DNA of 64,000 bases, taken from positions 1 through 64,000 of the forward strand of contig MERU01000008.1 in the NCBI GenBank assembly GCA_001770725.1, read 5' to 3'. The notes below the pieces were generated by a model that ran no database searches, had not been told where the DNA came from, and was given only the letters and a program-made list of their open reading frames with translations. Below are positions 11,513-32,891 of the stretch, piece after piece. The position numbers were made by a program, and so were the translations under genes. Numbering within the stretch: position 1 is the stretch's first letter; each line of letters begins with the position of its first letter. Source of the stretch: Burkholderiales bacterium RIFCSPHIGHO2_01_FULL_63_240. GTDB lineage: Bacteria > Pseudomonadota > Gammaproteobacteria > Burkholderiales > Burkholderiaceae_C.

Positions 11513-12214
11513 ATGAATCCCGGCATGCGCGTCCTCCTGATCGATGATCACCCTCTGTTCCGCGAGGGCCTCAAGGGCCTGCTGCTGGGGCTGGAGCCGT
11601 CCGTGCAGGTTGAACAGGCCGGTTCGATCGACATGGCCCTGACCCTGCAAGGCCAGGCATTCGACCTCGTGCTCATGGACCTGAACATGCCTGGCAGCCA
11701 GGGCATGGAAGCGCTGTTGCGCACCAAGGCCCTGTTCGAGGCCGCCGCCGTGGTGGTGGTTTCAGGCGACGAGTCGCCCAGCACCATCCAGAGTGCCATC
11801 CAGCATGGCGCGGCAGGCTATGTGCCCAAGACAACCGACCCAAGCGTGACCATCCAGGCCCTGCGGCTGGTGCTGGCTCAGGGCACCTACCTGCCCCCGG
11901 AGGCGTTGCGTCAGCCTGGTGCCACCGAAACGGCCTCGGCCCCTGCGGCAGCAGCTGCGGCTGCGCCGAGCTGGCCCAAAGAGCTCAGTCCGCGCCAACT
12001 GTCCGTGCTGCGCTGCCTGTTGCAAGGCAAGCCCAACAAGGTCATCGCCAGGGAAATCGGCATCGCCGAAGGCACGGTCAAAGCCCACCTGTGGGCCGTT
12101 TACCAGCTGCTGGGCGTGAGCAACCGCGCCCAGGCCATGTACCGGGCGCACGAGTTGCAACTCTTCAGCGCGCTGGACACCCCGCAACTCGCACCCCTAG
12201 CGCCCCATCCCTGA
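11513..12214 (+). CDS. NarL/LuxR-family response regulator
   Basis: A 233-residue two-domain regulator. The receiver has the acidic pair in LLIDDHPLF, the phosphoacceptor in LVLMDLNMPG near residue 57, and the lysine in GYVPKTT. An Ala-rich linker (residues about 140-152) leads to a LuxR-type helix-turn-helix with LSPRQLSVLRCLLQGKPN and IAREIGIAEGTVKAHL. It is followed 10 bases later by a hybrid kinase that would phosphorylate it, and that kinase gene overlaps a giant enzyme gene. The regulator probably controls that enzyme or this operon. This is inferred from position only. Confidence 0.9.
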   Translation: MNPGMRVLLIDDHPLFREGLKGLLLGLEPSVQVEQAGSIDMALTLQGQAFDLVLMDLNMPGSQGMEALLRTKALFEAAAVVVVSGDESPSTIQSAIQHGAAGYVPKTTDPSVTIQALRLVLAQGTYLPPEALRQPGATETASAPAAAAAAAPSWPKELSPRQLSVLRCLLQGKPNKVIAREIGIAEGTVKAHLWAVYQLLGVSNRAQAMYRAHELQLFSALDTPQLAPLAPHP

Positions 12215-12224
12215 GGCCAAGCGC

Positions 12225-14042
12225 ATGCCCACCTCGCACCAGTCTGGCAACGGGTCCCTGCGCAGCCCCCCCTCCTCCCCGCTCAATGCCGAGGTCGAGG
12301 TCCTGGAGCTGATCGCCCGTCAGGTCGGCAAGGTGCCTTGGCCGGTCGGGTTGTCCGCGTTGTTCGTGCTGGCCATGGCCTGGCACCAGGTGCCTCAGTG
12401 GGCCTTGCTGGCATGGACCATCGCCGTCATCGGCATGCAGGCCGTGCGCTGGACCATGCTGCGAGGCTTGCCCGGATCGGCGCGCTCCCATGCAAACCGC
12501 ATGCGGATCGCCGTTCTGCTCAGCGGGTTCAACGGCCTGGTTCAAGGCAGCGCCGTGCTGTTTTTCTACGGCATGACCGACCTGCAACGTGCGGTGGTCT
12601 CCATCCTGCTGGCAGGCATCACGGCAGGAGCCGTCGGCACCACCAACGGCCACCCGCGCATCTTCAAGGCCTTCGCTTTGCCGGTGATGCTGGGCCTGTC
12701 GCTGGCCTGGGCCGTCACCCCTCACCAGGACGGAAGCCTGCTGGTCGATGGCGCCATGTCCTTCCTGTGCCTGGCCTTCCTGGCCGTGCAGAACGGACTG
12801 GCGCGCGACAACTACCGCGCCCTGGTCGAATCGGTGGAAATGCGCAACGAACAGATCCGCCTCAACGAGCAGTTGCGCACCGCGCTGGAACAAGCAGAGG
12901 AGGCCAATGCAGCCAAGACGCGCTTCCTGGCATCAGCCAGTCACGACCTGCGCCAGCCCCTGCACACCCTGACGCTGTTTTGCGCGGCCCTGATGACGCA
13001 TGAGATCGACCCGTCTGCACGCCGCATCCTCACCCACATGGATGCCGCGCTCAGCGCCCTGCGCTCGCAGCTCACCGCCTTGCTCGACATGTCCAAGCTC
13101 GATGCCGGCATCGTCACCGTGCAGGCGCGCGCCTGCAACGTTGCCCCGATGCTGCAACGCCTGTGCGACGCCAAACGCGAAGAGGCCCACACCAAAGGGC
13201 TGCGACTGACATGTGCCATCGAAGACACCGTGGTCGTGCACACCGACCCCCTGCACCTTGAGCGCATCGTCGGCAACCTGCTCGACAACGCCATCAAGTA
13301 CTGCGATGCGGGCCATGTCTGGCTGCAGGCTCGACGCGTTGGCCATGAGGTTCACCTCATCGTCAAGGACACGGGGCGCGGCATCGCCGAGAAGGACCTT
13401 GGCAAGGTCTTCGAGGAGTTCTACCAGGTCGACAACCCCGAGCGCGATCGCACACGCGGATTGGGGTTGGGCCTGTCCATCGTTCAGCGCCTGAGCCGCC
13501 TGTTGGCGATGCCCCTGAGCCTGGATTCCGAGCTGGGCGTCGGCACCACCGTCTCCCTGACCCTGCCTCAGGCCGAAGCGTCCGACGCACCGCCTGTGGA
13601 GGAAGTGGTCGAGTCGGCCGCCATCCCGCTGTGCCACATGCTCGTGCTCGATGACGAAGCCGGCGTGCGCGTGGCGATGAAGACGCTGCTCGAATCACTG
13701 GGCTGTCGCGTGACGCTGGCCGCCTGCACCGACGAAGCCATGCGCCTGGCCAGCCTCGACCCGCCCGACGTGGTGCTGGCCGACTTTCGCCTGCGCGGCG
13801 AAGAAAGCGGCATCAAGGCCATCCGCAAGCTGCGCCAGCAGCAACCCGATCTACCCGCCATGCTGATCAGCGGAGACACCGCCCAAGACCGCCTGCTGGA
13901 AGCCCAGCAAGCCGGCCTGCGCATGCTGCACAAGCCTGTGTCGGTGGACGTGCTGCTCAAGGCGGTGATGGACACACTGGAGCTAGGAGTACTGGATGCC
14001 CCTGTGGAGTCAAGCGACGAAAGGGTCGCCTCCGGAACCTGA
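12225..14042 (+). CDS. Hybrid sensor histidine kinase with C-terminal receiver
   Basis: A 605-residue kinase. About six membrane segments fill residues 38-190 with little periplasmic sequence, so the signal is likely membrane-borne or cytoplasmic. HisKA follows, with the phosphorylated histidine in SASHDLRQPLH near 240. The ATPase domain has NLLDNAIKYCDAG near 350, DTGRGIAEKD and RGLGLGLSIV. A C-terminal receiver (about 466-585) has VLDDEAG and the acceptor in VVLADFRLRG. There is no HPt, so the attached receiver may act as a phosphate sink while the upstream LuxR-type regulator gives the output. The last 47 bases overlap the next gene in another frame. Confidence 0.92.
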   Translation: MPTSHQSGNGSLRSPPSSPLNAEVEVLELIARQVGKVPWPVGLSALFVLAMAWHQVPQWALLAWTIAVIGMQAVRWTMLRGLPGSARSHANRMRIAVLLSGFNGLVQGSAVLFFYGMTDLQRAVVSILLAGITAGAVGTTNGHPRIFKAFALPVMLGLSLAWAVTPHQDGSLLVDGAMSFLCLAFLAVQNGLARDNYRALVESVEMRNEQIRLNEQLRTALEQAEEANAAKTRFLASASHDLRQPLHTLTLFCAALMTHEIDPSARRILTHMDAALSALRSQLTALLDMSKLDAGIVTVQARACNVAPMLQRLCDAKREEAHTKGLRLTCAIEDTVVVHTDPLHLERIVGNLLDNAIKYCDAGHVWLQARRVGHEVHLIVKDTGRGIAEKDLGKVFEEFYQVDNPERDRTRGLGLGLSIVQRLSRLLAMPLSLDSELGVGTTVSLTLPQAEASDAPPVEEVVESAAIPLCHMLVLDDEAGVRVAMKTLLESLGCRVTLAACTDEAMRLASLDPPDVVLADFRLRGEESGIKAIRKLRQQQPDLPAMLISGDTAQDRLLEAQQAGLRMLHKPVSVDVLLKAVMDTLELGVLDAPVESSDERVASGT

Positions 14043-17000
14043 AATCACGGACCAGCGCGGTGCGGCAAAGCAAGCGCGTTGGTTGTCACAGGACTGGGAG
14101 AGCGTGCTGCATGGCATGCACTCGGGAGAGCTGTCGGCCGACGAGTCGGGCTGTCACTGCGATGTGCTGATCCTGGGCAGCGGCTATGGCGGCGCAGTGG
14201 CTGCGGCCGAACTGGCGGGCAGCCTCCTGCCAGATGGGCGCACGGCTCGCGTGTGGGTGCTCGAGCGAGGTCAGGAGCACCTGCCTGGCGCCTTCCCTTC
14301 CGAGCTGGGCGAGATGCCCGGGCACGTGCGATTGAGCATGGCAGGCAATGCCGCCGTGACCGGCCGGCGCGATGGCCTCTTCGACGTGCGCATCCAGCCC
14401 GACATCTGCGCCCTCGTGGGCAATGGCCTGGGCGGTGGCTCGCTCATCAATGCCGGCGTGATGGACTGGCCCGATGCCGCCGTCTTCGAACAGACGCACT
14501 GGCCCCGCGCGATCCGCGCAGAACACGCCGACCTGGCGCGGCGCGCACATGAACTTGCCAGCGTGCTGGGCGCTCGTCATGCCCCAGGCGATCATCACAG
14601 CAAGTCAGGCCAACCAGACGTGGGCGTGAACGGCGTCGCCTCGGCAGGCTGCGCCCCACAGCGCTTCAAGGCGTTCGAAACGCTGTCGGGCCCCGGTGCC
14701 TTCCGTGAGGCCCCCATCACCGTCGCATTGCAAGCCGGACCCAGCGCGGATGGTGTGCAACTCGATGCATGCCTGCACTGCGGCGACTGCGCCACCGGCT
14801 GCAACCACAACGCCAAGTTGTCGCTTGACACCAACCTGCTGGCCCGCGCCCGGCGCCTGGGCGCACGCGTGGTGACCGGCGCCACCGCATGGCGACTGAG
14901 CCCCTCACCTGGCGGATGGGATGTGGCCGTGCTCCACACCGATGCACAGGCCCAGCAACGCGAGGGGCACCCGCACACCGTGCGCGCAAGGCGCGTGATC
15001 GTGGCCGCCGGCACCCTGGGCTCGACCGAGCTGCTGCTTCGCTCGAGCGGTCCTGATCTGCCGCTCTCGCCAAGAGTCGGCGAACGCTTCTCGGGCAATG
15101 GCGACATGATCGCCGTGCTGCACGATGTACACGACGACCACGGCCACGGCGTGACGATCAACGGTGTGGCGCACGAGGCCCAACCGCCCGCCACCCGTGG
15201 CGTCGGCCCGACCATCACGGGCATCTTCGAGCAGAGGCGCCCGGGCGATCTGCCCCATGTGATCGAGGACCTGGCCGTGCCCGGGCCCATGCGCCGCATC
15301 TTCGAGGAGATCTTCAGCACCGCGCAGGCGCTGCACGCGCTCGGCGAAACCGATGCCAGCGAACACACGGGGCAGCCCGACGAGGCCGATCCCCTGGCCA
15401 CCACCGAGGCCGTGGCCCGTCGCTCGATGGCCGTGGCCCTCATCGGTCACGATGATGCCAACGGTCGACTCAAGCTTCGCGCGAGCAACCCCCTTCAGCC
15501 CCCCTGCGACGGCCAACTCGACATCGCCTGGCCATCCCTGCGCAACGACCCCAGCTTCGAAGCACGCCAGCAGGCCCTGCAGGCGCACTGCCAACGAAGG
15601 GGCTGGCGCACGCGCGTGTTGCCCAACCCGGCCTGGCGCCCGCTGCCCGACACCCTCGAGGACCTCTTCGGAGAACAACGTGGCCCCCTGTTGACCGTGC
15701 ACCCTCTCGGCGGCTGTGCCATGGGCGACGACGTCACACGTGGTGTGGTCAACGATCTGGGCGAGGTCTTCGACCCTCGATGCAGCGATGGCCGCGGCGT
15801 GCACGAGGGCCTGATGGTGCTCGATGGCGCCATCGTGCCCGGCTCTCTGGGCACCAACCCGGCGCTGACCATCGCTGCCTTGGCGCAACGTGGCATCACC
15901 CGGCTGCGCGAACGATGGGGCTGGCAAGCCGCCGACGCCGCCCCCGGCCCGTTGCGACAACGCCCTCGCCTGCGCCTCATGCCCGATCCGGTGCCTCACG
16001 AACGCACCCGCATCGAACTCGGCGAGCGCTTGCGCGGCTGGTGGGGCGACACCGGCATCGAACTCTCGCTGCGCTTCGGTCCGCAAGACCTGCAGGCCCT
16101 GGTGCGCGGCGAAAACGGCGCCCGCACCCTGCGCGTGAGCCCAGGCCACAGCGAGGTCCGTCGCGTGCGCCGCGCGCCCCAGGCCGAGGTCGATGCCCAA
16201 GGCGGCGACCCCTGGCACGAGGCCTTCACCATCGACCGACAACCCTTGCAAGGCCAGCTGCGCGTGCTGCATCGCGAGCCCAGTGGCCCGCTGCGCCGCA
16301 CGGCGCGCGGCCTGTGGGCCTGGTGGCTCAACCGCGGCTGGCGCGACCTGGGCCAGCACGTGGTCGACCGCGCCCGAGGCGATCAACACCACACGAGCCC
16401 CCGGCGTTCGCTGGGCGACGAGGTCACCCGGCGAGCCCGTGGCGCCTGGCGCCTGGCCAGCCGTGCTGGCGAGGTGCGCCGCTTCGACTACGAACTGCAG
16501 GTGCTCGGTGATGGGCCTTGGGCGGGCGAATCCATTCACGGTCACAAGCGGCTGACTTACAACGTGGGCGCCAACCCGTGGCGCCAGCTGATGGATGTGA
16601 GGCTGACCCAGGCACCCGGCCTGCGTCACCCAGACTGGGGTCCGGTGCTCAGCCTCGACCTGGCTGACCTGGCGCAACAAGGCCTGGCATTGCTGCGCGT
16701 GAGCCACCAGCACCACCTGCCCGACACCTGGGTCGAGCTCATCGGACTGGGCCTGTGGACGGCCCGACTGCTGTTGCACACCCACGTCTGGAGCCTGCGC
16801 CTGCCCGATGCGCCCCGCCCCGGCCCCGTCGACCGCCTGCCGCGCAGCACACCCCTTGGCTCGCCCGAGTTGCCCCGACACGAGGTCACCGAACTCAAAG
16901 TGGCCCCCGACCTGCCCGACGGCACCCCCGTGCGCCTGCGCCTGAGCCGCCTGCGCGGCCGCACCGCCGAGGCCCAGCCCATCTTGCTGCTGCACGGCTA

Positions 17001-19752
17001 CAGCGCTGGCGGCACCACCTTCCTGCACCCCTCGGTGCCGCAGGGCCTGGCCCGCACCCTGTGGGACGCCGGTTTCGACGTCTGGGTGGCCGACCTGCGC
17101 ACCAGCCCCGGCCTGCCCACCGCCACCCACCCGTGGACCTTCGAAGACGTCGCCCACCACGACATCCCCCTGGCCATCGACCACATCTGGCGGCACACCG
17201 GCGAGCGCCCCGTCGACGTCTTCGCCCACTGCATGGGCTCGGCCATGCTCTGGATGGGCCTGCTCGGCGACCCGTTGCCCGAGCACGGCGAACACGAGGC
17301 CCTGCGCCAGGCGATGCCCGAGCGCATCCGCCGCATCGGCATGAGCCAGGTCGCGCCGCTGGTCAGCTTCGCGCCCGACAACCTGTTTCGCGCCTTCCTC
17401 GCGCGCAACGCCATGGCCCTGCTGCCGCAAGGCCCCTTCCACTTCCGCCCCCCCTCGCAGGCCAGCTTCGCCGACGGACTGCTCGACCGACTCCTGTCGA
17501 CCCTGCCCTACCCGCGCGACGAATGGCGCCGCGCCAACCCACTGTGGCCGCCTGCCGCACGCACGCCGTGGGTGGGCAGCCGCCATCGCATGGACCTGCT
17601 GTACGGACGAGATTTCCAGCTGGCCAACATCCCCGATCGCGTGCTCCAGGACATCGACGAACACTTCGGCCCGCTCAACCTGGCCACGCTGACCCAGGCC
17701 CTGCACATGGCCCGCGCAGGGGGCCTGGCCAGCCCCGATGGCGAGGCGCGGTGCATTCGCCCCGAACGCCTGGCCAAGGTGCTGCAACGCACCCCGGTGA
17801 TGAGCGTGCACGGGCGCGAGAACGCGCTCTCCAGCGTCACCGGCCTGTTGCGCTTTCGCGCCCTGGTCGACGACCTGGGCCCGGATCTGGCCCAACGCTT
17901 CACGCACCACATCATCGAGGGCCATGGCCACCAGGACTGCCTCATCGGCGTTCACGCACCCAAGGTGGTCTTCCCGCTGGTCCTCGACTTCTTTCAGCGC
18001 GAAGCCCCTGCGCAAGCCCTCCCCAACGCCATGTCGCCCCAGCCCGTGCCCTGGGTCCCCAAGGTCAGCCCGGTGCCCCTGGGGCCCTTCCTGGGCACGG
18101 CTTTTTCGTCGCCGAGCTGGCGCGACGGTGCCCCGCACTGGCCCGTCTCCATCGGTCGCGACCCTGGCCAGCCCGAGCCCGTGCTGGTCGCCTGCGTGCC
18201 ACGCCAGCCCGATGGCCGGCTCGGCGCCCCCCACCTGCTGCCCTGGCCCGCTGCGCTCGCCTTGCGTGACAGCGGTCCCGCCATGGTGCGCACCCTCGCC
18301 GTGCCCGCCAGCTGGTGGCCTGGCCCGCGTCACCAGCTGGGCTTCTTCCTCGTGCAAGGCCCGGCCCGAACGCCCAACCAGGCTGAGCGCCAGCGCATCG
18401 TGGCGGCCGTGCTGGCGGCGGCCACCCCCGCCACCGATCACCAGGACACCGCTGGCCAAGACCGGATCGACGAGCCCTGCTGGGTGCCCTGCCCGCCGTC
18501 GGCCTGCCTGGCCGACGCCCTCGCTGGCACCCTGGCCCCGCCCTCGGCCCAGCCCGAAGCCTCCGCCCCCGCTGGTCAAGCCTGGGTGCTCGCCCTGGGC
18601 AGCTGCCTCTACCCCGGCAGCCTGGCCGAACGCACCCCCCCAGGCCCCGGCTGGCAGGCTGGCCCACCCGACCACGTCTGGCAACGCCTGAGCCAATGGC
18701 GCGCCCAGCCTGATCACCCGCCTCTCGAGCTCGCCATCCTCTCGGGCGACCAGATCTACGCCGACGCCACCGCGGGCCTGTTCGACCCACGCACGGCCAT
18801 CGGCCGCTTCCACCAGCCCCACCAGGCCATGCTGGCGCAATGCCTGCTGCGCCAGGCCCTGGCCGGCGTGCCCGTGCACACCCTCATCGACGACCACGAG
18901 ATCGTCGACAACTGGAGCTGGCAGGACGGCGACCACCCGCGGGCCGACATCCCCTGGGACGACAACCGCCAGCGCCGCGCCGACGGCCTGCGCGCCTACC
19001 GCCACCACCAGCGCTTCGCCCAGCCCGTGCGCCACCCCCTCGACCCGCGCGACCCCACCTCGCGCCCGGCCCGCCTCTGGTACGCCTTCGCCCACCGCGG
19101 CCTGCCCCTGTTCGTGGCCGACACGCGCACCCAGCGCGAACCCCGGGGCATCGCGCGCCTGGAGCAGGCTCAGATCATGGGCCGCACCCAGTGGGCCTGC
19201 CTGCTGCACTGGCTCGCCCACCATGGCCCCGACGATCGCCCCACCTTCGTCGCCAGCCCCTCCATCCTGCTGCCGCGCCGCCTGTTGTCCGACACCCTGC
19301 GCCCGGCCAGCGCCAGCCTCACCGACGCCTGGGAGGCCTACCCGCGCAGCCTGCACGCCCTGCTGGCCCACCTCTGCCGCACGCAGGCGCGCCACGTCGT
19401 CTTCCTGTCGGGCGACGAACACCTCTCGTGCATCGCCCGGCTGCGCATCCGCCGCGAAGGCGATGGCCCCGAGCGCGAGGTGCTGGCCCATTCGGTGCAC
19501 AGCTCGGCCCTGTACGCGCCCTACCCCTTCGCCAACAGCCGCCCGCACGACTTCCATGTGCACGACGCCTTCACCTTCACCGACCGGCACGAGGGCCGGC
19601 TCGAGCACTTCCACTGCCGGGTCGAGACCGATTTCGCCCCGCCGGGCGACGGCATCGCGCTGCTCGAAACCCGCCGGGACCCCGATGGACACTGGCACGT
19701 GGACGTGGGCTGGCAGCGCGAAAGCGGCCTCACCAGGCAAGCACTCTTCTGA
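13996..19752 (+). CDS. Trifunctional GMC oxidoreductase / alpha-beta hydrolase / PhoD-like phosphatase
   Basis: A 1918-residue protein with three enzyme domains. Residues about 50-620 are a cholesterol-oxidase-like GMC flavoenzyme: the FAD loop DVLILGSGYGGAVAAAEL near 54, the cysteine cluster CLHCGDCATGC near 258, HPLGGCAMGD near 569 and the closing NPALTIAALAQR. Residues about 960-1330 are an alpha/beta hydrolase with LLLHGYSAGG near 997 and a nucleophile elbow AHCMGSAM near 1077, where cysteine replaces the usual serine. Residues about 1530-1850 look like a PhoD-type metallophosphatase: LGSCLYPG, GDQIYAD near 1584, DDHEIVDNW near 1632 and LSGDEHLSC near 1804. The start at 13996 has AGGAG 7 bases upstream and overlaps the kinase gene. 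No signal peptide is seen. GMC-hydrolase fusions are known to me; the added phosphatase is not. The substrate is unknown; a sterol-like or ester lipid is a guess. Confidence 0.85.
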   Translation: MPLWSQATKGSPPEPEITDQRGAAKQARWLSQDWESVLHGMHSGELSADESGCHCDVLILGSGYGGAVAAAELAGSLLPDGRTARVWVLERGQEHLPGAFPSELGEMPGHVRLSMAGNAAVTGRRDGLFDVRIQPDICALVGNGLGGGSLINAGVMDWPDAAVFEQTHWPRAIRAEHADLARRAHELASVLGARHAPGDHHSKSGQPDVGVNGVASAGCAPQRFKAFETLSGPGAFREAPITVALQAGPSADGVQLDACLHCGDCATGCNHNAKLSLDTNLLARARRLGARVVTGATAWRLSPSPGGWDVAVLHTDAQAQQREGHPHTVRARRVIVAAGTLGSTELLLRSSGPDLPLSPRVGERFSGNGDMIAVLHDVHDDHGHGVTINGVAHEAQPPATRGVGPTITGIFEQRRPGDLPHVIEDLAVPGPMRRIFEEIFSTAQALHALGETDASEHTGQPDEADPLATTEAVARRSMAVALIGHDDANGRLKLRASNPLQPPCDGQLDIAWPSLRNDPSFEARQQALQAHCQRRGWRTRVLPNPAWRPLPDTLEDLFGEQRGPLLTVHPLGGCAMGDDVTRGVVNDLGEVFDPRCSDGRGVHEGLMVLDGAIVPGSLGTNPALTIAALAQRGITRLRERWGWQAADAAPGPLRQRPRLRLMPDPVPHERTRIELGERLRGWWGDTGIELSLRFGPQDLQALVRGENGARTLRVSPGHSEVRRVRRAPQAEVDAQGGDPWHEAFTIDRQPLQGQLRVLHREPSGPLRRTARGLWAWWLNRGWRDLGQHVVDRARGDQHHTSPRRSLGDEVTRRARGAWRLASRAGEVRRFDYELQVLGDGPWAGESIHGHKRLTYNVGANPWRQLMDVRLTQAPGLRHPDWGPVLSLDLADLAQQGLALLRVSHQHHLPDTWVELIGLGLWTARLLLHTHVWSLRLPDAPRPGPVDRLPRSTPLGSPELPRHEVTELKVAPDLPDGTPVRLRLSRLRGRTAEAQPILLLHGYSAGGTTFLHPSVPQGLARTLWDAGFDVWVADLRTSPGLPTATHPWTFEDVAHHDIPLAIDHIWRHTGERPVDVFAHCMGSAMLWMGLLGDPLPEHGEHEALRQAMPERIRRIGMSQVAPLVSFAPDNLFRAFLARNAMALLPQGPFHFRPPSQASFADGLLDRLLSTLPYPRDEWRRANPLWPPAARTPWVGSRHRMDLLYGRDFQLANIPDRVLQDIDEHFGPLNLATLTQALHMARAGGLASPDGEARCIRPERLAKVLQRTPVMSVHGRENALSSVTGLLRFRALVDDLGPDLAQRFTHHIIEGHGHQDCLIGVHAPKVVFPLVLDFFQREAPAQALPNAMSPQPVPWVPKVSPVPLGPFLGTAFSSPSWRDGAPHWPVSIGRDPGQPEPVLVACVPRQPDGRLGAPHLLPWPAALALRDSGPAMVRTLAVPASWWPGPRHQLGFFLVQGPARTPNQAERQRIVAAVLAAATPATDHQDTAGQDRIDEPCWVPCPPSACLADALAGTLAPPSAQPEASAPAGQAWVLALGSCLYPGSLAERTPPGPGWQAGPPDHVWQRLSQWRAQPDHPPLELAILSGDQIYADATAGLFDPRTAIGRFHQPHQAMLAQCLLRQALAGVPVHTLIDDHEIVDNWSWQDGDHPRADIPWDDNRQRRADGLRAYRHHQRFAQPVRHPLDPRDPTSRPARLWYAFAHRGLPLFVADTRTQREPRGIARLEQAQIMGRTQWACLLHWLAHHGPDDRPTFVASPSILLPRRLLSDTLRPASASLTDAWEAYPRSLHALLAHLCRTQARHVVFLSGDEHLSCIARLRIRREGDGPEREVLAHSVHSSALYAPYPFANSRPHDFHVHDAFTFTDRHEGRLEHFHCRVETDFAPPGDGIALLETRRDPDGHWHVDVGWQRESGLTRQALF

Positions 19753-19898: not shown

Positions 19899-22193
19899 AT
19901 GACCACCCCTGAAGAAAAACGCGCCGAGCTCAAGAAAGCCGCACTCGAGTACCACGAGTTCCCGACGCCCGGCAAACTGGCCATCAGCGCCACCAAGCAG
20001 CTCACCAACCAGCGTGACCTGGCCCTGGCCTACTCGCCCGGCGTGGCCGCCCCCTGCGAAGAAATCGTCGAAAACCCGGCCAACGCCTTCAAATACACCA
20101 GCCGCGGCAACCTGGTGGCCGTCATCACCAACGGCACGGCCGTGCTCGGCCTGGGCGACATCGGCCCGTTGGCGGCCAAGCCCGTGATGGAGGGCAAGGC
20201 CGTCCTCTTCAAGAAGTTCTCCGACATCGATGTCTTCGACATCGAGATCAACGAAAAGGACCCGGACAAGCTGGTCGAGATCATCGCCAGCCTGGAGCCG
20301 ACGTTTGGCGGCATCAACCTCGAAGACATCAAGGCCCCCGACTGCTTCTACGTCGAGCGCAAGCTGCGCGAGCGCATGAAGATCCCCGTCTTCCACGACG
20401 ACCAGCACGGCACCGCCATCGTCGTGGGCGCCGCCCTGCTCAATGGCCTCAAGGTCGTGGGCAAGGACATCAAGAACGTGAAATTGGTCACGTCCGGCGC
20501 GGGCGCGGCGGCCCTGGCCTGCCTGCAGCTGCTCGTCAAGCTGGGCGTGCCGCGCGAAAACATCTGGGTCACCGACCTGGCGGGCCTCGTTTACGAAGGC
20601 CGCGTCGAACTGATGGACCCCGACAAGGCCCAGTTCGCCCAGAAGACCGATCAGCGCAAGCTGTCCGAAGCCATCGAAGGCGCCGACATCTTCCTGGGCC
20701 TGTCCGCCGGCGGCGTGCTCAAGCCCGAGATGGTCGCCAAGATGGCGGCCAAGCCCATCATCTTCGCGCTGGCCAACCCCACGCCCGAGATCCTGCCCGA
20801 AGAGGTCAAGGCCGTGCGCGACGACGCCATCATGGCCACCGGCCGCACCGACTACCCGAACCAGGTCAACAACGTCCTGTGCTTCCCGTACATCTTCCGC
20901 GGCGCACTCGACTCGGGCGCCACCACCATCACCGATGAGATGGAGATCGCTGCCGTGCACGCCATCGCCGAGCTGGCCCAGGCCGAGCAAAGCGACGTGG
21001 TGGCCGCTGCCTACGTGGGCGCGAACCTGAGCTTCGGCCCCGAGTACCTGATCCCCAAGCCGTTCGACCCGCGCCTGATGATCAAGATCGCGCCGGCCGT
21101 CGCCCAGGCCGCCGTGCTCTCGGGCGTCGCCACGCGCCCGGTCACCGACTACGTGGCCTACACCGAGCGCCTGCTGAGCTTCGTCTACGCCTCCGGCCAC
21201 ACGATGAAGCCCATCTTCAGCGTGGCCAAGCGCGCCAAGAACAAGCGCATCGCCTACGCCGAAGGCGAGAACGAAGGCGTGCTGCGCGCCGCCCAGATCC
21301 TGGTCGACGAGGGCATCGCCCGCCCGATCCTGATCGGCCGCCCCGGCGTCATCGAGCAGCGCATCGAGCGCTTCGGCCTGCGCCTCAAACCCGGCGTCGA
21401 CGTCGACCTGGTCAGCACCGAGAACGACCCGCGCTACCGCGACTACTGGCAGGCCTACCACCGCCTGACCGAGCGCAAGGGCGTGACCGAGCAGATGGCC
21501 AAGATCGAGATGCGCCGCCGCCTGACCCTGATCGGCGCCATGCTGGTGCACAAGGGCGACGCCGACGGCCTGATCTGCGGCACCTGGGGCAACACCGCCC
21601 TGCACCTGCACTACATCGACCAGGTCATCGGCCGCCGCCCGGGTGTCAAGACCTACGCCGCCATGACCGGCCTGATCCTGCCGGGCCGCACGGTCAACAT
21701 CCTGGACACCCACATCAACCACGAGCCCACGGCCGAGCAGCTCGCCGAGATCACCATCATGGCCGCCGAGGAAATGATGCGTTTTGGCCAGCGCCCCAAG
21801 GCCGCGCTGCTGTCGCACTCGAATTTCGGATCGAGCAACCACCCCTCGGCCGTGAAGATGCGCGAGGCCCTGCACCTGATCCAGGAGCGCGCCCCCTGGC
21901 TGGAGATCGACGGCGAGATGCACGGCGACACCGCCCTGGACGCCGCCTACCGCCAGCAGCTGATGCCGCGCAGCACCCTCACGGGCGAGGCCAACTTGCT
22001 GGTGTGCCCGAACATCGACGCCGCCAACATCTCGTACAACCTGCTGAAGGTGGCCGCGGGCAACAACATCGCGCTGGGCCCCGTGCTGCTGGGCGCGGCC
22101 AAGCCGGTGTGCATCCTCACGCCTTCGGCCACGGTGCGCCGCATCGTCAACATGACGGCGATGACGGTGGCGGACGCCAACGCGCTGCGCTGA
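19899..22193 (+). CDS. maeB: NADP-dependent malic enzyme with phosphotransacetylase-like domain
   Basis: A 764-residue MaeB-type enzyme that decarboxylates malate to pyruvate with NADPH formation. The N-terminal malic domain carries YSPGVAAPC, the catalytic lysine region ([16 protein letters not shown] stretch at about 110-125) and [13 protein letters not shown], followed by a Rossmann domain with [12 protein letters not shown] and NPTPEILPE. Residues about 430-760 are a phosphotransacetylase-like domain, which in MaeB proteins is regulatory (acetyl-CoA responsive) rather than catalytic. The ATG at 19899 begins the classical [11 protein letters not shown]. The gene stands alone, 146 bases after the giant enzyme. 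Confidence 0.95.
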
Positions 22194-22342
22194 GGCACGG
22201 GCTTGACCTGGGTCGAACCCGAACCAGGTGCGCCCGGCTGTCGGGGCCCCGCCCCCGAAAAATTCACGCCCACCCGGCCCTGACACAGGTCAGGCGGGCT
22301 TGTCAAACGGCCCCAGTACCCGCTTTCCCCGGGGCTGGGGCC

Positions 22343-22371
22343 TTGAGCTTTTTGGGCTCTTTCTCTACCAT
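22343..22371 (+). promoter_or_regulatory. Candidate sigma-70 promoter of the RNase gene
   Basis: TTGAGC at 22343-22348 and TACCAT at 22366-22371 are separated by exactly 17 bases. Each hexamer matches the consensus at four of six positions. It lies 25 bases before the chosen GTG start, inside a gap of about 200 bases that holds nothing else I can name. Confidence 0.45.
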
Positions 22372-22395
22372 ACCGCCTTTAACGAAGAAGCTGCA

Positions 22396-22866
22396 GTGCT
22401 GAAAAAACACCGGCTCGTTCACTCGCTGACCCGAACAGTCTTTCGAAACTTCGCGCTGGCCCTGGCGACATCGCTGGTTGTGCTGGCGGTGCCCCCGGTC
22501 GAGGCGTTCACCCAGGCGTACAAGCCGTACAGCAGCCAGGGTGCACCCGAGGCAGAGCAGGCGCAGCGAAGTCAGGTCATCGCCTTGAGCGAGCTGCCTG
22601 TTCAGGCACGGGATGTCCACCGGCGCATCCACGAAGGGGGTCCGTTCCGCTACAGCAAGGACGGATCGGTCTTCGGCAACCGGGAACGCCTGCTGCCACG
22701 TCGACCCCGCGGCTTCTATCGTGAATACACCGTGCCCACGCCGGGCGAACGCGATCGCGGGGCGCGACGCATCGTCTGCGGAGGTAAAGAAGTTCGACAA
22801 CCTGAAACTTGTTTCTACACGCGGGATCACTATGCAAGCTTCCAGCAGATCGATCCCCGCCGCTGA
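22396..22866 (+). CDS. Secreted barnase-like (N1/T1) ribonuclease
   Basis: A 156-residue secreted RNase. The first 35 residues are a basic, hydrophobic signal peptide (LALATSLVVLAVPPVEA). The catalytic fold of microbial guanyl-specific RNases follows: LPVQARDVHRRIHEGGPF, GSVFGNRERLLP, then the glutamate in YREYTVPTPG near 109, an arginine in RGARRIVCGG near 123 and the histidine in TRDHYASF near 144. These are the usual Glu/Arg/His of barnase. Two cysteines near the end (IVCGG, ETCFY) may form a disulfide. I used the GTG at 22396, since the reading frame upstream lacks a better start. The barstar gene follows 107 bases later. A role in competition or in nutrient RNA breakdown are both possible. 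Confidence 0.88.
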   Translation: MLKKHRLVHSLTRTVFRNFALALATSLVVLAVPPVEAFTQAYKPYSSQGAPEAEQAQRSQVIALSELPVQARDVHRRIHEGGPFRYSKDGSVFGNRERLLPRRPRGFYREYTVPTPGERDRGARRIVCGGKEVRQPETCFYTRDHYASFQQIDPRR

Positions 22867-22973
22867 CCCTCGCTGACGGGCCCGAATCCGCCCCGACGCA
22901 CACGCTCTTTCTCTGACCCTCAACAGCCCCAACGGTCGCCGAACCTTCGACGCACCGCGGGCCCCAAGCGATC

Positions 22974-23531
22974 ATGTTGTTGCAATCCGTTCGACCCAAC
23001 ATCGTTCAATCCATCCGGGCCTACCGTCCGGAAGACTTGCAACAGGCTGCCAACGCCGCAGGCCACCACTTCCTGTACACCAACCTGGGCGGCGCCCGGG
23101 ACAAGCAGGACGTGCTGGACATCATCGCGCGTGACTTCCTGTTCCCGGACCACTTCGGCAAGAACCTGGACGCCCTCTACGACTGCATCACGGACATGGT
23201 GCACAAATCGGGTCCGCAGCCTGGTTTCGTCGTCGTGCTGGAGCTGATCCCCGGCGGCAACGTCGACCGCGAAACGCGCGAGCAGCTGCTCGACGCCTTC
23301 CGCGACGCGGCCGATTTCTGGGGTGAGCGCAAGATCCCCTTCCGCGTCTTCTACTCGATCGCCGTGTCGGGCAAGGAGTCGGCCGGCAACTGGGACAAGG
23401 CCGAAGTCGCCCAGAACGACCCGAACGTCAAGCCGGTCAAGGTCTCGAAAAACGCCCCGGCCCCGATGATCATGAACCTGCCCCCGATGAGCAGCGTCTT
23501 CGACACCGCGGCCCTGCTGGTCGCGGCCTGA
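22974..23531 (+). CDS. Barstar-family ribonuclease inhibitor
   Basis: A 185-residue cytoplasmic protein of the barstar family. The core is at about residues 25-115: FLYTNLGGARDKQDVLDIIARDF, then FPDHFGKNLDALYDCITDM, where the Asp and neighbouring acidic residues normally plug the RNase active site. A C-terminal extension of about 50 residues, rich in Pro, Asn and Val (NDPNVKPVKVSKNAPAP), is not part of classical barstar (90 residues). It lacks a signal peptide, as expected for a protein that protects the cytoplasm from RNase before export. Confidence 0.9.
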   Translation: MLLQSVRPNIVQSIRAYRPEDLQQAANAAGHHFLYTNLGGARDKQDVLDIIARDFLFPDHFGKNLDALYDCITDMVHKSGPQPGFVVVLELIPGGNVDRETREQLLDAFRDAADFWGERKIPFRVFYSIAVSGKESAGNWDKAEVAQNDPNVKPVKVSKNAPAPMIMNLPPMSSVFDTAALLVAA

Positions 23532-32764: not shown

Positions 32765-32794
32765 ACTCACCCAGCGGGACACATGCGGGTGAGC
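32765..32794 (-). promoter_or_regulatory. Alternative hairpin of the SAH riboswitch (expression platform)
   Basis: On the minus strand GCTCACCC (32794-32787), part of the 3' strand of the aptamer, can pair with GGGTGAGT (32772-32765) just downstream. The two pairings exclude each other, so SAH binding should prevent this hairpin. No T run follows, and the ahcY start is about 100 bases further on, so it is not a plain terminator or a direct ribosome-site block. How it acts is open. Confidence 0.5.
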
Positions 32795-32884
32795 GCCGTT
32801 GCAAAAGGAGAAGCTTTCGAGCCTGGGGCCAGCGGTTCGCGCCGTGTTCAACGACGGGACGGGCCTTGCAACGCTCCTCGAAAG
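32787..32884 (-). ncRNA. S-adenosylhomocysteine (SAH) riboswitch
   Basis: Minus-strand leader of ahcY. CTTTCGAG (32884-32877) pairs perfectly with CTCGAAAG (32821-32814) as stem P1. The highly conserved GAGGAGCGTTGCAA block follows the 5' strand of P1, and CCCAGGCTCG precedes its end. The tail TTTTGCAACGGCGCTCACC can form the known pseudoknot with GAGCGTTGCA. This is the classic SAH aptamer found upstream of ahcY in Beta- and Gammaproteobacteria, where SAH turns the gene on. Confidence 0.93.
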
Positions 32885-32891
32885 TGGCGCG

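What the first reader, a model, noticed from the sequence alone, without database searches (positions are those of the whole stretch)
13996..19752. 1918-residue fusion of GMC oxidoreductase, alpha/beta hydrolase and PhoD-like phosphatase
Three complete-looking enzymes lie in one reading frame. All key motifs are visible, except that the hydrolase elbow has Cys (AHCMGS) where Ser is usual. GMC plus hydrolase fusions are known to me for sterol or ester substrates, but the added metallophosphatase is unusual. The gene overlaps a hybrid kinase gene, so it is controlled with a two-component system. A pathway that oxidises, hydrolyses and dephosphorylates one complex molecule is a reasonable but unproven reading.
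Basis: partly seen in the sequence, partly recalled or inferred. Interest (0 to 1): 0.75.

Follow-up and report, generated by a model that had tools for sequence, protein, structure and literature searches.

The report
Fused flavoenzyme, cysteine hydrolase and phosphatase
A bacterium makes one giant protein that joins three enzymes, and its middle enzyme belongs to a widespread, apparently unstudied branch of the hydrolases that keeps a cysteine-histidine-asparagine active site where serine, histidine and aspartate are usual.

Summary
The 1918-residue ORF is one gene, overlaps a hybrid histidine kinase by 47 bases, and carries GMC flavoenzyme, alpha/beta hydrolase (ABH) and PhoD domains, all under purifying selection. 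The architecture is not unique: relatives occur in Beta-, Gamma- and Alphaproteobacteria, with PhoD fused (16 of 33 loci) or as the next gene (17 of 33). The elbow Cys is no oddity of this gene. Cys1079, Asn1276 and His1312 are kept in 234 of 235 listed proteins (the exception is truncated) and in two stand-alone relatives from Actinomycetota. Asn stands where two Ser-type relatives have Asp. The GMC domain has a CxxCxxCxxxC motif, absent from solved cholesterol oxidase, that resembles an Fe-S site. A kinase sits directly upstream in 31 of 33 testable loci, but five same-genus genomes have the kinase without the enzyme. Best reading: a cytoplasmic, probably lipid-directed enzyme in which an Fe-S flavodehydrogenase, a papain-type Cys-His-Asn acyl hydrolase/transferase and a phosphoesterase act in one pathway, expressed with a two-component system. 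New variant of known kinds.

The parts
11513..12214 (+). LuxR-type response regulator gene
   Evidence: Pfam Response_reg and GerE; best NCBIfam model ErdR, 127 bits against a cut-off of 390, so not an ErdR member
12225..14042 (+). Hybrid histidine kinase: N-terminal hydrophobic sensor (about residues 1-210, no Pfam family), HisKA, HATPase_c, receiver
   Evidence: nearest NCBIfam subfamily NahK/ErcS, 295 bits against a cut-off of 400
13996..19752 (+). Fusion gene, 1918 aa: GMC - middle domain - alpha/beta hydrolase - linker - PhoD
14143..15915 (+). GMC flavoenzyme domain, residues 50-640; presumed catalytic pair His569 and Asn621
   Evidence: profile match to solved cholesterol oxidases, E 7e-28
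14770..14802 (+). Four-cysteine motif C259-x2-C262-x2-C265-x3-C269, candidate Fe-S site
   Evidence: invariant in 26 of 26 rows of A1; C..CG.C..GCN in 226 of 232 homologues, the 6 others not inspected; absent in the solved cholesterol oxidase aligned
15916..16875 (+). Middle domain, residues 641-960, no known family
   Evidence: no Pfam match at E up to 2; dN/dS 0.17-0.27
16876..18030 (+). Alpha/beta hydrolase domain, residues 961-1345
17230..17232 (+). Cys1079, nucleophile position
   Evidence: C in 235 of 235 listed proteins, the window's own included
17821..17823 (+). Asn1276, in the place of the catalytic acid
   Evidence: N in 234 of 235, 1 gap; Asp in the same column in the Ser-type relatives L060 and L079, the only two weak hits in which it aligned
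17929..17931 (+). His1312, catalytic histidine position (GHxD)
   Evidence: H in 234 of 235, 1 gap
18586..19749 (+). PhoD-like metallophosphoesterase domain, residues 1531-1918
   Evidence: Pfam PhoD 85 bits; profile match to solved PhoD 2yeq, E 2e-15

Best explanation
The gene encodes a soluble cytoplasmic three-enzyme protein that probably works on a lipid-like alcohol or ester in one pathway. Step 1: the GMC domain oxidises a hydroxyl with FAD and the His569/Asn621 pair and passes electrons through an Fe-S cluster held by four cysteines to an external acceptor, acting as a dehydrogenase rather than an oxidase. Step 2: the ABH domain forms a thioester on Cys1079, with His1312 as base and Asn1276 in place of the usual acid, and hydrolyses or transfers the acyl group by a papain-like Cys-His-Asn mechanism. 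Step 3: the PhoD domain removes a phosphate or phosphodiester headgroup from the same molecule or its precursor. The upstream two-component system governs when it is made. Shown by sequence: one gene, the domains, the invariant residues, the PhoD partnership, the kinase adjacency. Inferred: the Fe-S cluster, the catalytic roles, the order of steps, the cytoplasmic place (no signal peptide by eye), the lipid substrate, regulation by the kinase.
For: Domains. The best solved relatives of the GMC and ABH domains are cholesterol oxidase, gastric lipase and lysosomal acid lipase/cholesteryl ester hydrolase; glucose dehydrogenase, PHA synthase and bacterial lipases follow more weakly. Triad C/N/H: 38 of 38 rows at 25-87% identity, 234 of 235 listed proteins, 10 of 10 further loci in three phyla, four of them already seen. 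Control: of 13 weaker hits whose elbow aligned, 12 have Ser and one (L080, which I take from recall of its GFCVGGT motif for a PHA synthase) has Cys; the two whose acid column aligned have Asp. Four Cys. PhoD partnership: 16 fused and 17 next-gene of 33 loci, 14 of the 17 with an ATGA overlap; PhoD-bearing rows form one clade with SH-aLRT 100. Kinase directly upstream in 31 of 33 loci and beside the enzyme in 20 of 27 enzyme-bearing relatives (read). Lipid or acyl-thioester context of distant relatives: phosphoesterase and GT4 glycosyltransferase, metallophosphoesterase in Azospirillum, patatin, PKS and thioester reductase.
Against: No substrate is identified. Among 16 diverse loci, beyond kinase (15), response regulator (11) and PhoD, the widest recurring neighbour within 10 kb is an ABC-transporter-like ORF in 4, at scattered places; neighbours were not annotated systematically. 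The kinase is present without the enzyme in five same-genus genomes, and 2 of 33 loci plus 7 of 27 enzyme-bearing relatives lack it beside the enzyme. The four-Cys motif also occurs in plain GMC enzymes, so it says nothing special about this fusion, and no cluster has been shown. Domains in one protein need not share a substrate.
Confidence: 0.45

Rival explanations
1. Sterol-ester catabolism: the ABH domain is a cholesteryl-ester-type hydrolase and the GMC domain a cholesterol oxidase, as some automatic annotations say; PhoD only scavenges phosphate.
For: Best solved relatives are cholesterol oxidase and gastric/lysosomal acid lipase; a number of homologues are labelled cholesterol oxidase by their source.
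Against: Cholesterol oxidase NCBIfam model scores 120 of a required 850 bits; the four-Cys motif is missing from the solved cholesterol oxidase aligned; the Ser and Asp positions of the lipase triad hold Cys and Asn. Whether steroid genes lie nearby was not tested systematically; in three Halieaceae loci ORFs that read like a thiolase and an acyl-CoA dehydrogenase lie 3-9 kb away (named from reading), which would fit this or any other lipid breakdown.
Confidence: 0.13
2. The Cys-Asn-His domain is an acyltransferase or thioesterase rather than an ester hydrolase, joining or releasing an acyl chain as PHA synthase or a carrier-protein thioesterase does.
For: Cys-nucleophile ABH enzymes in the literature include PHA synthase (PMC11878206, passages); weak profile matches to PHA synthase (E 0.0006; 20 bits against a cut-off of 365); stand-alone C/N/H protein directly after a type I PKS and a thioester reductase in Rhodococcus; CoA-transferase and PHA synthase genes near the Rhizobium relative.
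Against: The known Cys enzymes listed there keep Asp; the closest solved relatives are lipases; context is from a few distant relatives only.
Confidence: 0.3
3. The enzyme makes or removes the ligand that the upstream hybrid kinase senses, like the synthase/kinase gene pairs of quorum-sensing systems (recalled parallel).
For: Conserved pairing of a membrane hybrid kinase with the enzyme over several orders; one genome encodes both in a single open frame.
Against: Kinase present without enzyme in five same-genus genomes; in Ensifer and genome G253 an AAA/cyclase-type protein lies beside the gene and no such kinase sensor was found; the single-frame case is one of 711 hits (120 listed) and has a homopolymer run at the junction.
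Confidence: 0.12
4. Artefact: the three domains share a frame by chance or by an assembly error.
For: None beyond the fact that PhoD is a separate gene in many relatives.
Against: Same continuous frame in independent assemblies L021 and L023 and 15 full-length homologues at 80-96% identity; purifying selection in every part, the linker included.
Confidence: 0.01

Closest known systems
Bacterial cholesterol oxidase (GMC class, e.g. PDB 4rek, 1coy)
   Same: GMC fold family, FAD motif, HPLGGC and NP motifs
   Different: No four-Cys motif in the solved enzyme aligned; no ABH or PhoD; NCBIfam cut-off missed by far
FAD glucose dehydrogenase of Burkholderia cepacia (PDB 8hdd; PMC6719666)
   Same: GMC enzyme with a cysteine-rich loop that holds an Fe-S cluster 12-13 A from FAD (passages read)
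   Different: Its cluster is 3Fe-4S on three cysteines with other spacing, with hitchhiker and multihaem subunits; here the next genes are a kinase and a malic-enzyme-like gene
Gastric and lysosomal acid lipases (PDB 1hlg, 1k8q, 6v7n)
   Same: Best solved match of the ABH domain (62, 57 and 53 bits), including the His-x-Asp motif
   Different: Ser in the aligned elbow; catalytic Asp (recalled) where this family has Asn
Cys-nucleophile ABH enzymes: dienelactone hydrolase, PHA synthase, PhaZ
   Same: Cys at the elbow
   Different: Cys-Asp-His triad (PMC11878206, passages), not Cys-Asn-His
Laboratory-evolved cysteine lipases from CALB (PMC6642262)
   Same: Cys nucleophile on an ABH lipase fold
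   Different: Engineered, Cys-His-Asp; the passages read give Cys-His-Asn only for cysteine proteases such as papain
PhoD alkaline phosphatase (PDB 2yeq)
   Same: PF09423, 85 bits; GDQxY, DDHE, SGDxH motifs
   Different: Fused C-terminally to a redox/hydrolase protein without a signal peptide that I could see

Membership tests
GMC oxidoreductase | GMC_oxred_N and GMC_oxred_C above gathering cut-off, FAD and HPLGGC/NP motifs | tested here: met
   47 and 43.7 bits against 23 and 24.6; all three motif patterns in 220 of 223 proteins of 1600 aa or more
Cholesterol oxidase | NCBIfam equivalog NF058674 cut-off | tested here: not met
   120 bits against 850
Cholesterol oxidase | Oxidation of 3-beta-hydroxysterols | not testable with these tools
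   needs an assay
Fe-S GMC dehydrogenase | Conserved cysteine cluster in the GMC domain | tested here: met
   C259/C262/C265/C269 invariant in 26 of 26
Fe-S GMC dehydrogenase | Bound iron-sulfur cluster | not testable with these tools
   needs purified protein
Alpha/beta hydrolase | Abhydrolase profile and nucleophile elbow | tested here: met
   21.7 bits, below cut-off for this protein; 28.0-37.8 in four relatives; lipase match of the family profile E 4e-16
Serine lipase (gastric/lysosomal acid type) | Ser-Asp-His triad | tested here: not met
   Cys-Asn-His in 234 of 235
Cys-Asp-His ABH enzymes | Asp as third triad member | tested here: not met
   Asn in the acid column; the only invariant acidic residue in the alignment is Asp1314, two after the His
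Cys-Asn-His ABH (proposed here) | The three residues in contact in the structure | not testable with these tools
PhoD phosphatase | PF09423 above cut-off and metal-site motifs | tested here: met
   85 bits against 27; all four motif patterns in 176 of 223, DDHE in 222 of 223 proteins (the motifs' metal role is recalled)
NahK/ErcS kinase and ErdR regulator | NCBIfam cut-offs | tested here: not met
   295 of 400 and 127 of 390 bits

The most novel reading that the evidence does not exclude
A natural family of alpha/beta-fold lipases or acyltransferases has converted the Ser-His-Asp triad into a papain-like Cys-His-Asn triad, spread over at least three phyla, and usually works fused to an Fe-S flavodehydrogenase, so that alcohol oxidation, thioester chemistry and, in one clade, dephosphorylation and kinase-coupled control are one unit.
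Probability: 0.35. Interest if true: 0.8.

Novelty: new variant of a known kind. Interest (0 to 1): 0.58.

Why it matters
The passages I read of a recent ABH classification list Ser-Asp/Glu-His, Cys-Asp-His, Asp-Asp/Glu-His and dyad sites, not Cys-Asn-His, and an engineering paper presents active cysteine lipases as something made in the laboratory. A natural family with an invariant Cys-Asn-His set would give a direct test of how serine and cysteine triads interconvert on one fold, with more than two hundred sequences to work from. The fused redox and phosphatase partners, and the kinase, offer handles on the substrate of a protein family that databases name by default after cholesterol oxidase, choline dehydrogenase or alpha/beta hydrolase.

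Tried and rejected
In-frame TGA codons reported inside many relatives looked at first like selenocysteine; searches show that where they fall between the domains they end the ABH protein before a separate PhoD gene, so this was dropped. A kinase-enzyme single protein in Aquabacterium sp. J223 (2377-2443 aa) would be a striking fusion, but it is one among 711 hits, no other of the 120 listed has kinase domains, and a G run lies at the junction, so I treat it as uncertain. Anti-phage defence: no PADLOC match for the enzyme, one weak kinase-core match (2e-05) for the kinase. No tRNA in the window; the only Rfam match is 13 kb away. A first count of elbow residues by regular expression was spoiled by the oxyanion-loop motif and replaced by the profile count. 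The PhoD rows are void because the query file was concatenated; one search repeats that test properly. One search was too noisy and was redone. One search also lists antisense shadow ORFs, which I did not count. An earlier count gave 11 of 11 Ser for the control; the right count is 12 of 13. Paper searches for the fusion or for a Cys-His-Asn alpha/beta hydrolase found nothing on this family; they cover only open-licence full texts and I judged most hits by the listing alone.

Full report
What is there. Window 13996-19752 (+) encodes one 1918-aa protein. Its start lies in the last 47 bases of the ORF for a hybrid histidine kinase (12225-14042), which follows a LuxR-type response regulator (11513-12214). 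Downstream come a malic-enzyme-like gene (19900-22193, named from its reading, not tested) and a barnase/barstar pair. The protein is GMC flavoenzyme (about 50-640), a middle domain without a Pfam family (641-960), an alpha/beta hydrolase (961-1345), a variable linker and a PhoD phosphoesterase (1531-1918). I see no signal peptide in the N-terminus (by eye), and hydropathy shows only one marginal peak, inside the hydrolase. Between the window and two orthologues (L021, Aquabacterium parvum; L023, a MAG) dN/dS is 0.16-0.27 in all domains and 0.35-0.46 in the linker.

Relatives. A protein search gave 735 hits, 120 listed; 116 of the 120 carry GMC and PhoD families and are 1823-2033 aa long, the other four (P0017, P0066, P0075, P0117) lack PhoD. 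A scan of GTDB genomes gave 45 loci, some of them fragments, from Burkholderiales, Halieaceae, Thiotrichaceae, Granulosicoccaceae, Lysobacteraceae, Paramesorhizobium and others, and Ensifer megaplasmids carry it too. Of the 33 loci where both parts could be placed, PhoD is in the same uninterrupted frame in 16 and a separate downstream gene in 17, of which 14 have an ATGA stop-start overlap (the other 12 loci hold fragments, weak matches or a contig end). A tree of 42 ABH domains puts the eight rows without PhoD in one clade and the 34 with PhoD in another, each with SH-aLRT 100; the tree needs 4 switches between fused and next-gene, 3 of them forced by well-supported branches (quick tree, 14 of 39 inner branches open; L071 and L106 have long branches). 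No PhoD was found by tblastn in the fetched stretches around the eight rows labelled 'no PhoD' (16-19 kb each, but only 4.7 kb for L068). The two states interchange but the partner stays, which argues for a shared pathway or complex.

The hydrolase. In 38 aligned domains, down to about 25% identity, Cys1079, Asn1276 and His1312 are invariant. A profile made from them finds C/N/H in 234 of 235 proteins listed by two protein searches (the window's own and one duplicate included); the exception, P0017, is cut short after the Cys. Ten further loci agree, four of them seen already, including stand-alone proteins of 352-366 aa in Rhodococcus, Pseudonocardia and genome G134, and a two-domain enzyme of Bernardetia (Bacteroidota). 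As a control, 13 weaker hits to the same profile had an aligned elbow: 12 have Ser and one, L080 of the window's own genome, has Cys in a motif (GFCVGGT) that I recall as that of PHA synthase. The Asn column aligned in only two of them (L060, L079), and both have Asp. The best solved relatives are gastric and lysosomal acid lipases. No acidic residue is invariant apart from Asp1314, two residues after the His. Of papers I read passages only: PMC11878206 lists Cys-Asp-His for dienelactone hydrolase, PhaZ and PHA synthase, PMC6642262 describes evolved Cys-His-Asp lipases and gives Cys-His-Asn for cysteine proteases.

The flavoenzyme. Four cysteines (259, 262, 265, 269) are invariant in 26 of 26 aligned proteins; the exact pattern C..CG.C..GCN is in 226 of 232 homologues, the six others not inspected. 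The solved cholesterol oxidase aligned lacks it. It also occurs in stand-alone GMC enzymes L114-L116 and not in the window genome's paralogue L112, so it marks a GMC subgroup. In B. cepacia glucose dehydrogenase a cysteine-rich loop of a GMC enzyme holds a 3Fe-4S cluster near FAD (PMC6719666, passages). An Fe-S cluster here is therefore plausible but inferred. One two-domain relative is followed by a RoxA-like cytochrome gene (L111).

The kinase. In the set plus the window, 34 loci were examined; one (L036) starts at the contig edge; 31 of the other 33 have a hybrid-kinase ORF directly upstream on the same strand, gap -47 to +256 bases; L031 and L051 do not (the ORFs were grouped by BLAST, Pfam was run on the window's kinase only). 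Many of these loci are close relatives, so the number of independent cases is smaller. In 199 relative genomes, 27 have the C/N/H domain; reading the coordinates, a kinase of this sensor family lies beside the enzyme in 20 of them (in G001 and G018 after the PhoD gene, in G151 divergently). Of the seven others five (G105, G109, G118, G132, G134) belong to the clade without PhoD, one is a short contig (G020) and in one (G107) the kinase is on another contig. Against strict coupling: five same-genus genomes (G006, G014, G021, G025, G040; G014 is 53% and G040 86% complete) have a strong kinase-sensor match but no C/N/H domain. In G006 and G040 the kinase stands in the window's gene order, without the response regulator, with another ORF where the enzyme would be; in G014, G021 and G025 the regulator-kinase pair lies a few genes away in the same neighbourhood. 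In Ensifer and G253 a divergent AAA_16/guanylate-cyclase protein lies beside the enzyme and no such kinase sensor was found. The kinase and regulator resemble the NahK/ErcS and ErdR families without reaching their cut-offs; a review places these in alcohol and acetate metabolism of Pseudomonas (PMC12997753, passages), which would fit an alcohol-oxidising target but is only a lead.

Function. Hints point to lipid or acyl chemistry: lipases and cholesterol oxidase as best solved matches; a patatin and an acetoacetate-decarboxylase-family gene beside a stand-alone C/N/H protein (L106); a calcineurin-like phosphoesterase with weak LpxH similarity and a GT4 glycosyltransferase next to the two-domain enzyme of G132; a gene annotated metallophosphoesterase next to that of Azospirillum, without a Pfam match but with the expected motifs by eye; a type I PKS and a thioester reductase before the Rhodococcus protein; CoA-transferase, Fe-alcohol dehydrogenase and PHA synthase genes near the Rhizobium one. 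Phosphoesterase neighbours were seen in 2 of 9 two-domain loci looked at (L104, L105, L107, L108, L110, L111, L118, L119, L122), three of them (L107, L108, L110) only by reading translations. Around the PhoD-bearing relatives the widest further neighbour was an ABC-transporter-like ORF in 4 of 16 diverse loci. None of this names a substrate.

Verdict. The architecture is a family already present in databases under generic names; what seems unreported in the texts I could search is its conserved Cys-Asn-His set and its linked partners.

Noticed in passing
window 22228-23531: Ribonuclease (barnase-type) and barstar genes side by side, downstream of the malic-enzyme-like gene; similar DNA is kept in sister species.
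   Followed up: no
window 32784-32885 (-): SAH riboswitch, 61.8 bits against a gathering score of 37.
   Followed up: no
L074 1003-8334: In Aquabacterium sp. J223 a kinase, receiver, GMC, ABH and PhoD form one open frame of 2443 codons (NCBI protein of 2377 aa); a G run at the junction leaves its reality open.
   Followed up: partly
L095, L097, L098, L099, L100: Same-genus genomes have the kinase in this neighbourhood but lack the fusion gene, a natural with/without comparison.
   Followed up: partly
L121 4947-6020: Stand-alone C/N/H hydrolase one base overlapping a thioester reductase gene after a large type I PKS on a Rhodococcus plasmid.
   Followed up: partly
L109 12386-16465 and L117 4606-8616: Divergent adenylate/guanylate cyclase plus AAA_16 protein beside the enzyme in genome G253 and in Ensifer, where no kinase of this sensor family was found.
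   Followed up: partly
window 15916-16875 and 12225-12927: The middle domain of the fusion and the kinase sensor have no Pfam family at E up to 2.
   Followed up: no
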